Shown in pieces: positions 15,951 through 20,013 of a stretch of DNA of 64,000 nucleotides. Both the position numbers and the translations under genes were made by a program. Source of the stretch: Spongilla lacustris. Its lineage: Eukaryota > Porifera > Demospongiae > Spongillida > Spongillidae. The notes below the pieces were generated by a model. The model was not told the DNA's origin and ran no database searches. It saw only the letters and a list, made by a program, of their open reading frames with translations. Positions within the stretch are counted from its first letter, which is position 1. Every line of letters begins with the position of its first letter. The DNA is taken from assembly GCA_949361645.1 (NCBI GenBank), contig OX442432.1:5778397-5842396 (forward strand), written 5' to 3'.

Positions 15951-18900
15951 ATGGAATTTGGCAGTGACTACGTGTACGCTCCTCAAGAGCAGAAGGAAGA
16001 ATACGAGTACGTACCGGAGAGCGTCTTCAACCACACAGCGGCAGCCGATGACGACCCGTCTGCGGACGACGGAGAGGTATCTTACTGTGCTTTGCTTCCA
16101 AACGTGTACGACCAATTGCTCCATTGCGCTGCCCTATATAGACATGCCTTCTGGACATACTGGACACGGCTGGTCAAGAGGAGTATTCTGCAGTGCGAGA
16201 TGCGGTAAGGGGCCGGGTCGTTTAACGTCGGTGGACGAGTCTCCTAGCTCTTCCCATGGCTATAGTACATTCGCAACGGGAACTGCTTCGTGATAGTCTA
16301 CTCCATAACAAGTCGCCAATCGTTTGAAGAAGCCTCGGCCATGTACGAGTGGATCGAGAGAATGAAAGGAGAAGCCATGCCGGTGGTAGGTTAATAACAT
16401 TTATGGTCATGGTATGCATGGCACTGCCGTCTCCTCCGGGTCAAGGTGTTTTGTGGAAACAAGAGCGATCTCGCAGGTGAGAGACAGGTGACGACCCAAG
16501 AAGGACAGGACCTCGCCCAGAGGTACAACTGTCCCTTCTTCGAGACGTCCGCCAAGCTTAACACCAACATCAAAGAAGCCATCGAGGAGCTCATACGAAG
16601 AACTCCGCGTCACGGGAAGGACTACAAGCTGGCGATCATGGGTTCGGGCGGTGTGGGGAAGTCGAGCATATGCGTGCAGTTCTGCACAGGGACCTTTGTT
16701 GAATGCTACGACCCAACGATAGAGGACACGTACCGCAAGCAGGTCATAGTGAAGGGTATTCCAAACGCCAGCCAGAATGCGCAAGCGAGTTTTCTATCAC
16801 CAGCACCCCCACCCCCGCCACCCCCGCTACCATCGTCATGGCCCCCACCCCCGCCACCCCAACTAACGTCGTCATGGCCCCCACCCCCACCCCCACCACC
16901 GGTACCCCCACTACCATCGCCATGGCATTCAGTCCAACCACCACCCCCACTGCCATCGTCAAGGTCCCAACCCCACCCCCGCCACCTCCACTGCCATCGT
17001 CATGGCCCCCACCCCCACCCCCACCCCCACTACCATCGCCATGGCGTTCAGTCCAACCACCACCACCACGGCCGCTGTCATGGTCCCGACCCCCACCCCC
17101 GGCACCTCCACTGCCATCTAGTCTGGGGACCAGGCTGATGGTTGTACTATCAGTCTGGGAACAACTGCGCATCAAAGTTGTTCCGTTCTGCAGTCAGCAT
17201 GAATCTCATTTATGCCCTATCACATACATGAATATCATTTTGTTAACCTACATCCCTATGAATAACATTACTTGTAACCCTCTAGTTCCTGTAATGGACA
17301 CACATAAAGACGCTATTCGTATCGCTGCTGCCAAACTTGGGTTTGCTGACTTAAAGAGCCATCAATTAGAAGTTATTCTGGCTTTCATCACTGGCAATGA
17401 TGTTTTTGCAGTCCTTCCAACGGGATATGGAAAAAGTTTATGTTACCACTAAACCACATTATAAATTCATAACATTCCAGAGGAACTAGTTCGATGCGCG
17501 GTTGTTCCCAGACTGATAGTACAACCATCAGCCTGGTCCCCAGACTAACTGCCATCGTCATGGCCCCCACCCCCACCCCCACCCCCACCCCCACCTCCCC
17601 CACTACCATCGCCATGGCATTCAGTCCAACCATCGTCATGCCCCCCACCCCCACCCCCACCTCCCCCACTACCATCGCCATGGCATTCAGTCCAACCATC
17701 GTCAAGGCCCCCAGCCCCACCCCCACTACCTCCACTATCATCGTCATGGCGTTCGCTGGCACCACCAGCCCCACGTCCATTGTCATGGCCCCGACCCCTG
17801 CCACTTTCACGGCCCATGCATCAGTCATGGGTCCCGACACCACCCCCACCACCACCACAGCCCCGCCCACCGCCATCTTCGCGGCCCCCGTCGTCACATC
17901 CGCAGCCTCAGGGGGTAAAGAAGGAGATCAAGGTAAAGGCGTCCAACAACAACGCCTTGGTGCTGCACCTGGGTGAGCTGGGGAACGAGCTGGTGCCTGC
18001 TACGGGAGACCCGTGCTTCTGTGGACAGTGCGGAGCGGCTCTGTCGCACATATCACAGCTGGACACCAGCGGTGGCACCTCCACTTGGAAATGGTAAGTC
18101 CTTACGAATTAATAGAAACAGCTGACGATGAATTGATTGGATGTACTCGCGAAACGTAGCGAGTTTTGTGGCAGGGAAAACACTGGGCTGGACGTCACCC
18201 CTGAGGCTGTAGCCAGTGGAACATTAGTCGACTACCTACTAGCACCTGCAGACGCTAAAGAAGACAAGGCCGGGGCAAGCGAGAAAGCTGCATCCAAGGC
18301 AGGCCATGGGAGTGGCTTGGTCATCTTTGCAATTGATGTGAGTGGATCAATGGCCGCAACCACAGAGGTTCCAGCTCTTCAAGGTGAGTGTGTACGCTTG
18401 CACAGTCTTTAAATAAAGACATCTCTCTGCCTCTACTGTATTGCATGTAGCTCAATGGAGTGCAGTTACTGGTAGATCTCAGGGTGGAGGGGGTACACGC
18501 TACATATCAAGACTTGAGGCCATCCAGGAGGCTGTTAAGAGGCACCTGGACCTCATGTCTATCACTGATCCCAACACTAAGGTTGCCCTGATTACATTTG
18601 ACAACAAGATCACCTACTATGGTGATGGTTCTTCGGCACCAGTCCAACTGGACAGCAGTAAGTTGGATGACTATCAGGTGCTCATGAAGCAAGGCACGGC
18701 TTTTGGTAGTGACCTATCATTAAAAGCCTTGACCCTCTCATTAAAGTAAGGTTCAGTTAGACTCTCCCTTGTTTGGATACTTTTTAACACATCCCCTTTG
18801 CTTTCTTGAATATAGTGACCTCAAAGACAAAGTTGGTCAACTTCACACTGGAGGAAGCACGGCTCTGGGACCTACACTGGCAGTTGGCGTTGGAATGGCA

Positions 18901-20013
18901 TCTAACTTTCCCACAGCAGAGATTATTCTGTGTACAGATGGAGTGTCTAATGTTGGTGTTGGGAACTTGGAAGGAAACAAAGATACCACAGGATTCTACC
19001 TATCAGTATGTTGTCTCATGTTAATGCCACTAGATATGTACTATCCTTCCCCCATGCATAGATAGGGGAGCATGCTCAGGTAGCCCACACTGTTATCTCT
19101 ATACTTGGCATAGAGGGAGCCAACAGTGCAATGGAAGCTCTTTCATCGTGTGCCTCCATCACCAATGGCACAATCAACATTCTCCATCCTCTGGAGATGG
19201 TTCGCCAGATAAGACAGATAGCTCAAAACCCTGTGGTGGCCACAGAGGTGGAAATCATGTACATCATGTCTCCAGCCATCATTGCACTGGGAAAGACATC
19301 TGAATCTCCGCATGTTACTCTAATCAGAGAGCACTTGGGAAATGCTACTAAGGAGACAGATGTCAGTTTCACCTTTTCTGTAGAGGGAAGCAAAGTAAAA
19401 GATTCCAGTTCCCTACCATTCCAAGTCCAAATTCGTTACAAGAAGAAGGATGGGTCAAGATGTTTGCGTGTGCTCAGTCAGGCCAAGCAGGCAACTGCAG
19501 ATAAAAAAAAGGTTGAAACAGCCAGCAATGTTGCTGTTATGGGGCTAGCAGCTGTTCAACAAGCCTCTAAACTGGCCCAGGCAGGCAAAGTTGAAGAAGC
19601 ACGAGAAAATCTGTGAGTGGATGGGTTGTTGAGCATGCGTTAACACTTTTTAAAATCCTTCCTCTATTCTAAACATTCCCTTTCATGTTTTTCCATTTCT
19701 CCCCCTCCCCACCTTCCTATACAATAGGCTAGCAGCAACGAAAATGCTCAAACGTTCTGCAGTGTCAGCCCAGCAGCAAGAGGAACAGGCCATCTTCAGT
19801 GAGGCTGCTTTTGAATTGGACAGAGGACTACTGCAGGAGCAAACATCTGCCAGCAGCAGAGGCATGTCTGACACTACAGCCAAGATGATCCACCGTAATA
19901 AGAAGGCTAACCTTGGCCAATTCCTTAGTGGAGCAGCTAAGAAGGATGTGGTCTCCAAGAGAAAAGCAGATCAGTCAGTTTCTGACCAGTACTATGGGTA
20001 CCAGTTTAAGTGA
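15951..20013 (+). CDS. Circularly permuted Ras GTPase fused to zinc ribbon and von Willebrand A domain
   Basis: Ras-type GTPase with its motifs in rotated order. Exons: 15951-16076, 16142-16204, 16266-16385, 16446 into a proline-rich region, a second block ending 18093, then 18160-18383, 18451-18745, 18816-19005, 19062-19612, 19728-20013. An acidic N-terminus (1-42) runs straight into G3 ([18 protein letters not shown], residues 45-62, Gln54 matching Ras Q61). Then come G4 (GNKSDL, 107-112), G5 (ETSAK, 136-140), G1 P-loop (GSGGVGKSS, 169-177) and switch I/G2 ([12 protein letters not shown], 191-202). A proline-rich linker leads to a zinc ribbon (CFCGQC and CEFCG), then a VWA domain with MIDAS motif FAIDVSGSM, and a basic C-terminus ending YYGYQFK. 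The order agrees with the published cpRAS family (CPRas1 of Dictyostelium). Reading frame between 16800 and 17930 is uncertain because a transposon and repeat indels lie there. Confidence 0.88.
17121..17545. mobile_element. 425-bp TIR element inserted in the permuted-Ras linker
   Basis: Inverted terminal repeats of about 62 bp: 17121-17182 and the reverse complement of 17484-17545, both starting GTCTGGGGACCAGGCTGATG and identical for the first 45 bases. A TA dinucleotide lies on each side (17119-17120 and 17546-17547), as in Tc1/mariner-type insertions. Host linker sequence, ctgccatc, continues on both sides. The interior holds a fragment of a RecQ-type helicase gene and no transposase, so the element is non-autonomous. 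Confidence 0.85.
17295..17450 (+). pseudogene. RecQ-helicase N-terminal fragment carried in the TIR element
   Basis: An open stretch from the ATG at 17295 encodes about 51 residues. They include [17 protein letters not shown], matching the RecQ Q-motif region (F-x-x-x-R/K-x-x-Q), and [16 protein letters not shown], a RecQ-type Walker A (usually LPTGGGKS; here GYGKS). It stops three codons after that block. All later helicase motifs are absent, so it cannot be an active helicase. It looks like one captured exon. Confidence 0.75.

What the first reader, a model, noticed from the sequence alone, without database searches (positions are those of the whole stretch)
15951..20013. A Ras GTPase with circularly permuted motifs fused to a zinc ribbon and VWA domain
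Seen: the G motifs are encoded in the order G3 ([13 protein letters not shown]), G4 (GNKSDL), G5 (ETSAK), G1 (GSGGVGKSS), G2 ([12 protein letters not shown]), across four exons with matching splice phases. All catalytic residues (equivalents of Gly12, Thr35, Gln61) are kept and switch II is almost identical to canonical Ras. The natural Ras C-terminus is joined to its N-terminus by only a few residues ([12 protein letters not shown]). Established: a cpRAS family with scattered phylogenetic distribution is described, including Dictyostelium CPRas1. Inference: the VWA MIDAS (DVSGSM) and zinc ribbon could be a scaffold that reads the GTPase state. Because the C-terminus is occupied, prenylation-based membrane anchoring is lost.
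Basis: partly seen in the sequence, partly recalled or inferred. Interest (0 to 1): 0.88.

Follow-up and report, generated by a model that had tools for sequence, protein, structure and literature searches.

The report
Circularly permuted Ras in Sec23-like scaffold
This gene belongs to a known but unstudied kind: a molecular switch of the Ras type with its two halves swapped, apparently plugged into a protein built like a vesicle-coat subunit; this particular copy has recently been cut by a jumping gene.

Summary
The protein type is not new: Elias & Novotny 2008 described cpRAS-VWA proteins with this motif order, a possible four-Cys zinc finger and a sponge member. Additions: (1) In this copy the GTPase and VWA halves are not in one open frame. 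Exon 4 is interrupted between them by a 429-bp transposon (17119-17547, 9-bp target duplication, five identical copies elsewhere), plus a one-base frame slip in a proline-rich minisatellite. Two tandem paralogues 5.5 Mb away read straight through, so the joined architecture is real for the family; this copy may be dead, spliced around the element, or reduced to a GTPase-only product. (2) The non-GTPase part has a Sec23/Sec24-type core with an invariant MIDAS. (3) A conserved N-terminal strand (M-x-F-G-S-x-x-V-Y) precedes the GTPase and aligns with the start of the Sec23 fold; many GTPase-less relatives open with the same motif, then a linker, then the zinc ribbon. I infer that Ras, opened at its beta2-beta3 hairpin, was inserted there (or later excised from the relatives) rather than fused in front. 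Function is untested.

The parts
15951..16076 (+). Exon 1: conserved N-terminal strand MEFGSDYVY, acidic linker, DGE just before G3
   Evidence: intron starts GTATCT, phase 0
16142..16204 (+). Exon 2: strand 3, G3/switch II ([21 protein letters not shown])
16266..16385 (+). Exon 3: [15 protein letters not shown]... (GTPase core between G3 and G4)
16446..16757 (+). Exon 4, first part: G4 GNKSDL, G5 ETSAK, helix5-strand1 junction, G1 [10 protein letters not shown]2 [17 protein letters not shown]
16758..17118 (+). Proline-rich minisatellite linker, with a one-base frame slip in a C run near 16970
17119..17547 (+). 429-bp TIR transposon insertion (47-nt perfect terminal inverted repeats, DEAD-like helicase fragment inside), flanked by 9-bp duplication ACTGCCATC (17110-17118 and 17548-17556)
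17548..17911 (+). Rest of the proline-rich linker, open in the frame of the zinc ribbon
17912..18093 (+). Exon 4, last part: zinc ribbon CGQC; second Cys pair formed across the splice
18160..18383 (+). Exon 5: CEFC, start of VWA with MIDAS DVSGSM
18451..18745 (+). Exon 6: VWA/Sec23-type trunk
18816..19005 (+). Exon 7: VWA with MIDAS Thr (GGSTALGP) and Asp (CTDG)
19062..19612 (+). Exon 8: end of trunk, Sec23-type beta-sandwich
19728..20013 (+). Exon 9: helical C-terminus ending QYYGYQFK, no CaaX
13544..15048 (+). Truncated, frame-broken duplicate of the VWA half (93% identical to 18568-20064), next to Ty3-like pol fragments

Best explanation
The gene is a third copy, in this genome, of the known cpRAS-VWA (CPRas1) family. 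Shown: a Ras-family G domain in permuted order, followed in the two open paralogues by a Sec23/Sec24-type core with a MIDAS that is invariant among the relatives aligned. Shown by sequence and structure prediction of relatives: a conserved N-terminal strand before the G domain that aligns with the start of the Sec23 fold and is shared with many GTPase-less relatives. Inferred: a permuted Ras was inserted into a pre-existing Sec23/24-like scaffold, joined through its beta2-beta3 (interswitch) hairpin. GTP binding and hydrolysis would then move the interswitch and so the attached strand and zinc ribbon, switching a client site at the MIDAS face. It would be a GTP-switched scaffold or adaptor without a prenyl anchor; in some protists a RING is attached and it may act as an E3 ligase. 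The window copy was under purifying selection for most of its history but now carries a young transposon between the two halves. It most likely makes at best a truncated ~333-aa GTPase product unless the element is spliced out.
Against: No biochemistry, expression or complex data. 10 of 24 clusters do not beat all motif controls (9 at or near background, P0133 just below the maximum), and 8 of the 14 that do are one close group. Zinc-finger and beta-sandwich Pfam scores for the window half and protein B are below the curated cut-offs; Sec23_helical and gelsolin models are not hit. Insertion versus later excision is not settled by an unrooted tree. No transcript shows what the window copy makes.
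Confidence: 0.68

Rival explanations
1. Plain N-terminal fusion, the reading of the 2008 paper: a cpRAS domain with an unconserved N-terminal tail placed in front of a zinc finger-VWA module; no insertion and no shared N-terminal strand.
For: The 2008 paper describes the N-terminal 40-66 residues as poorly conserved, without recognisable homology. Most of that stretch after the first ~11 residues is indeed variable, with model confidence falling to 63 around residues 31-40.
Against: The first ~9 residues are conserved (54 of 67 rows by pattern) and modelled at mean pLDDT 98; the same motif opens many GTPase-less relatives; both models align from residue 1, with Sec23A from residue 17.
Confidence: 0.2
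2. The window copy is still a working full-length gene: the transposon, or the whole proline-rich stretch, is removed as an intron.
For: Strong purifying selection; the element's 3' end offers an acceptor in the training range (score 4.9), and an intron 16749-17905 keeps the frame open; element plus duplication is 438 nt, a multiple of three.
Against: The best donor downstream of the P-loop scores 3.4 against 3.9 for the weakest training donor, and the element's own terminal GT scores -0.3; in B and C this stretch reads open as exon; a one-base frame slip is also present unless it is an assembly error in a C run.
Confidence: 0.25
3. The window copy now makes only a GTPase with a proline/histidine-rich tail, or two separate products: a decaying or newly reduced gene.
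For: The frame from exon 1 to TGA 17136 is open for ~333 aa and keeps the complete G domain; two open paralogues give redundancy.
Against: No transcript evidence at all; the insertion is young (identical to five other copies), so selection has had little time to shape a new product.
Confidence: 0.35
4. The GTPase part is a structural relic that does not switch.
For: None of the papers listed is, by title and abstract start, an assay of this protein.
Against: Ras catalytic and nucleotide-binding residues are almost invariant across the relatives; Ka/Ks 0.046 for the GTPase half.
Confidence: 0.1

Closest known systems
cpRAS-VWA proteins / CPRas1 (Elias & Novotny 2008; NCBI 'circularly permutated Ras protein 1-like')
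   Same: Motif order, VWA, four-Cys zinc finger; paralogues B and C of 837 and 856 aa fall in or next to the size range of ~840-970 given in 2008; sponge members known
   Different: Window copy has an expanded proline-rich linker cut by a transposon; the conserved N-terminal strand and the Sec23-type beta-sandwich are not in the 2008 text that I read (parts 1-3 of 4)
GTPase-less Sec23/24-like relatives (some named CPRas1 in fish and ray)
   Same: N-terminal motif in many, zinc ribbon, VWA with MIDAS, beta-sandwich, helical end
   Different: No Ras domain; separate clade
COPII Sec23/Sec24
   Same: Order and fold of zinc finger, VWA trunk, beta-sandwich and a helical end; start of the fold
   Different: No gelsolin model hit here; the Asp of CTDG kept here is not in the aligned Sec24A; Sec23 acts on a separate GTPase, Sar1 (recalled), here a GTPase is built in
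Archaeal ArnA/ArnB
   Same: Zinc ribbon plus VWA plus beta-sandwich core; 8s05 among the structural matches
   Different: Two chains, FHA domain and phosphorylation instead of a GTPase (PMC12852372, passages seen)
YRG (YawG/YlqF) GTPases
   Same: Circularly permuted GTPase
   Different: Order G4-G5-G1-G2-G3; chain opened at a different place (stated in PMC2430557)

Membership tests
cpRAS-VWA (CPRas1) | Ras-family G domain in order G3-G4-G5-G1-G2 | tested here: met
cpRAS-VWA (CPRas1) | Same polypeptide carries four-Cys zinc finger and VWA | tested here: inconclusive
   Met in paralogues B and C; in the window copy the frame is interrupted
cpRAS-VWA (CPRas1) | Groups with the family in a tree of the C-terminal half | tested here: met
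   W, B, C with P0001 at 100/100 on the cpRAS side
Canonical Ras small GTPases | Order G1 to G5 and C-terminal CaaX | tested here: not met
   Permuted order; window gene ends GYQFK; 0 of 67 relatives end in CaaX
Sec23/Sec24 coat subunits | Zinc finger, trunk, beta-sandwich in order | tested here: met
   zinc finger and beta-sandwich are below the Pfam cut-off in protein B and the window half
Sec23/Sec24 coat subunits | C-terminal gelsolin-like domain | tested here: not met
   No gelsolin hit at E<=1 in protein B or the window C-half (HMMER's filters drop most hits above about 0.1)
Sec23/Sec24 coat subunits | Role in COPII coat | not testable with these tools
   needs localisation or interaction data
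YRG permuted GTPases | Order G4-G5-G1-G2-G3 | tested here: not met
   order is G3-G4-G5-G1-G2
Active GTPase | Nucleotide binding and hydrolysis | not testable with these tools
   residues present only

The most novel reading that the evidence does not exclude
cpRAS is not a fusion but a domain insertion: a Ras opened at its interswitch hairpin was plugged between the first beta-sandwich strand and the zinc ribbon of a Sec23/Sec24-type scaffold, so that the nucleotide-driven interswitch movement is hard-wired into a coat-like body with a working MIDAS. Circular permutation would then be the consequence of choosing that insertion point, and the GTPase-less relatives are the scaffold without its switch.
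Probability: 0.55. Interest if true: 0.7.

Novelty: new member of a known kind. Interest (0 to 1): 0.45.

Why it matters
The gene itself is another member of a family named in 2008; the papers I could search listed no functional study of it by title or abstract. What could matter is the reinterpretation. If the permuted Ras is wired through its interswitch into a Sec23/24-type body, it gives a concrete, testable reason for the permutation and a first mechanistic hypothesis for a GTPase family found from amoebae to sponges, molluscs and echinoderms. The window also shows a member gene caught shortly after a transposon landed between its two modules.

Tried and rejected
Intron in the linker: 132 frame-keeping GT-AG pairs exist (donors tried from 16650 to 17560), but they either cut into the P-loop or use donors weaker than the weakest training donor. 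Removing element plus duplication (438 nt) does not by itself join the two frames; the remaining one-base mismatch sits in a C run. N-terminal motif in this genome's own GTPase-less paralogue (C14, about 4,095-4,103 kb): LNLGSDHVW upstream of the zinc ribbon ranks 6th of 19,554 windows, so only suggestive. A regular expression for a C-terminal RING found 0 of 234 and is disregarded, because the precomputed Pfam column shows RING (PF13920) in P0094, P0100, P0102 and P0103 and one search places it at 912-960 of 967 in P0100. Weak Pfam hits RHH_1, Arm_PDR and CPSF6 were set aside as chance. Model coordinates were not in the Python box, so contacts between GTPase and body were not measured. Papers: two searches on the Sec23 core gave only PMC12852372 as useful; for PMC8296547 and PMC3505798 I saw single passages (a reference and a primer table); the other listings were not opened.

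Rows dropped or mixed: 67 of the 120 listed relatives (of 283 found) went into A1, and 56 of these 67 into A2. The tree used 35 of 38 chosen cpRAS proteins (3 fell out silently because they lack the exact D.SGSM string) plus W, B, C and 18 GTPase-less rows, one of which (P0142, no start Met, long branch) fell among the cpRAS rows. The 24 clusters come from 106 Met-starting proteins chosen by pattern among P0121-P0234; the filter let in fragments of cpRAS proteins (P0124 and P0135 begin inside the G1-G2 part), which count among the nine background rows. The alignment behind the P0148 model holds 8 cpRAS rows of 30, so that model is not independent of them.

Full report
Observation. The motifs G3, G4, G5, G1, G2 lie in that order on the + strand in four exons starting at 15951. 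The 207-aa GTPase part scores E 1.9e-51 to Pfam Ras in two stretches. Put back in normal order it matches RAP2A (E 3.3e-52), KRas and HRas over the G domain. Counting from the HRas alignment there (2cld_X 3-162 to query 5-164), the six residues between the equivalents of Ras 162 and 3 equal 163-166 plus 1-2. The old C-terminus is thus joined to the old N-terminus with no added residue. In 39 of the 51 relatives where both motifs could be found the distance from SAK to the P-loop is 28 residues, as in the window gene.

Known family. Elias & Novotny 2008 (PMC2430557; parts 1-3 of 4 read) described this permutation, its combination with a VWA domain, a possible four-Cys zinc finger upstream of it, and its presence in a sponge, lancelet, sea urchin, choanoflagellate, Capsaspora, Dictyostelium, Acanthamoeba and Naegleria. 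My search of 5.8 billion proteins found 283 relatives at E<=1e-3 (120 listed), many named 'circularly permutated Ras protein 1-like'. The papers listed for the name and architecture include no functional study by title and abstract start. So the architecture is established and the gene is another member.

Is the window copy joined? Two tandem paralogues, B (837 aa) and C (856 aa), lie on the same contig at about 270.6-277.7 kb. They fit the same nine exons, and exon 4 is open from G1-G2 through a short linker into the zinc ribbon. Several database relatives with both halves come from transcript assemblies (for example P0002 and P0012). The joined architecture is therefore real for the family. 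In the window copy the linker has grown to about 1.15 kb: a proline-rich minisatellite holding a 429-bp element at 17119-17547 with 47-nt perfect terminal inverted repeats and a helicase-like fragment. The genome holds at least five more copies identical over all 429 bases, and all six are flanked by 9-bp duplications, so the insertion is young. The frame from G1-G2 stops at TGA 17136 in the element; after a one-base change in a C run near 16970 it would stop at TAA 17450. The zinc ribbon is in a different frame. The best donor downstream of the P-loop scores 3.4, against 3.9-11.8 for the 24 donors of the three copies from which the matrix was made. For most of its history the gene was under strong constraint: Ka/Ks against B is 0.046 for the GTPase half (207 codons, Ks 1.37, near saturation) and 0.071 for the rest (570 codons, Ks 0.81).

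Insertion rather than fusion. The 2008 paper saw no homology in the N-terminal 40-66 residues. The first nine or so, M-x-F-G-S-x-x-V-Y, follow a pattern in 54 of 67 relatives and are modelled at mean pLDDT 98. A search with C-terminal halves only (162 found, 120 listed) returned relatives without a Ras domain from a mollusc, fish, a ray, Dictyostelium and unnamed sources. Of the 15 that I printed, 8 clearly begin with the same motif, followed by a variable linker and the zinc ribbon; one is doubtful and six do not, of which some are fragments. Scored against a matrix from 52 cpRAS proteins, 14 of 24 clusters of Met-starting proteins without Ras motifs beat every one of 2246 internal-Met control windows; P0133 lay just below the control maximum and nine looked like background, at least two of them fragments of cpRAS proteins. 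Eight of the 14 share a near-identical start and are one close group, so the independent count is about seven. The model of a GTPase-less fish protein (P0148, pLDDT 77.8, pTM 0.76) has its first ten residues at mean pLDDT 92, then a stretch below 50. Its alignments start at model residue 1 and at residue 17 of human Sec23A or 12 of yeast Sec23, as for the cpRAS model (only ranges are reported). In a tree of the C-terminal halves 17 of 18 GTPase-less rows form one clade (100/99) apart from the cpRAS rows; the eighteenth is a fragment. The simplest reading is a single gain, or a loss, of the G domain between the first strand and the zinc ribbon.

Mechanism (inferred). Because the chain enters the G domain at strand 3 and leaves it at strand 2, the scaffold is attached to both ends of the interswitch hairpin, the element that shifts on nucleotide exchange in Arf/Sar-type GTPases (recalled). 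Thr35 (64 of 64), Gln61 (63 of 64; Thr in P0098) and Gly10, Gly12, Lys16, Ser17 (64 of 64; Gly13 58 of 64, otherwise Ala) point to a working switch. No relative in A1 ends in a CaaX box (0 of 67), so classical prenylation is absent; other membrane contacts are not excluded. Four relatives listed carry a RING model; in P0100 it is C-terminal, and the 2008 paper reports one in Naegleria, so some members may steer ubiquitin transfer. PMC12852372 (passages only) describes the same core in archaeal ArnB, with a metal in the MIDAS, and names WAV3 E3 ligases as close structural relatives.

Locus history. B and C are nearly identical over their scaffold halves (Ks 0.054) but diverged in the GTPase halves (Ks 0.67), suggesting gene conversion that spares the switch. 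Upstream of the window copy, 13544-15048 is a broken duplicate of the VWA half (93% identical, frame-changing gaps) beginning next to Ty3-like pol fragments. The same genome has a relative on contig C14 with zinc ribbon and MIDAS exons and no Ras exon found in the 16 kb searched (best E 0.15).

Verdict. Observation largely right, family already known, joining not shown for this copy, and a better-supported reading of the architecture is a Ras inserted in a Sec23/24-type scaffold.

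Noticed in passing
13544-15048 (+): Truncated duplicate of the VWA half with frame-breaking gaps, starting beside Ty3-like pol fragments at 10383-13497 (-).
   Followed up: yes
G000 C19 about 270.6-277.7 kb (L009, L010): Two tandem cpRAS-VWA genes whose scaffold halves are nearly identical while their GTPase halves have diverged (Ks 0.05 vs 0.67): likely domain-wise gene conversion.
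   Followed up: partly
G000 C14 about 4,095-4,103 kb (L049, L050): Apparent GTPase-less paralogue in the same genome, zinc ribbon and DVSGSM present, possible N-terminal strand LNLGSDHVW.
   Followed up: partly
2302-6627 (-): 1441-aa open frame resembling a Ty3-type gag-pol retroelement (by reading the translation).
   Followed up: no
30295-33431: 25-bp tandem repeat, about 125 copies at 98% matches, open in several frames on both strands.
   Followed up: no
24103-25098 (+): C2H2 zinc-finger array in one open frame.
   Followed up: partly
41556-42653 (+): Open frame of 365 aa with a weak Git3 (glucose-receptor type GPCR) match, E 7e-4, below the curated cut-off.
   Followed up: partly
6892-7899 (-): Open frame matching part of the POT/PTR2 transporter family (E 1.7e-10).
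   Followed up: partly
Database proteins P0139, P0146, P0148 (ray, fish): Named 'circularly permutated Ras protein 1' but without a Ras domain in the Pfam column; the name seems carried over from the scaffold half.
   Followed up: partly
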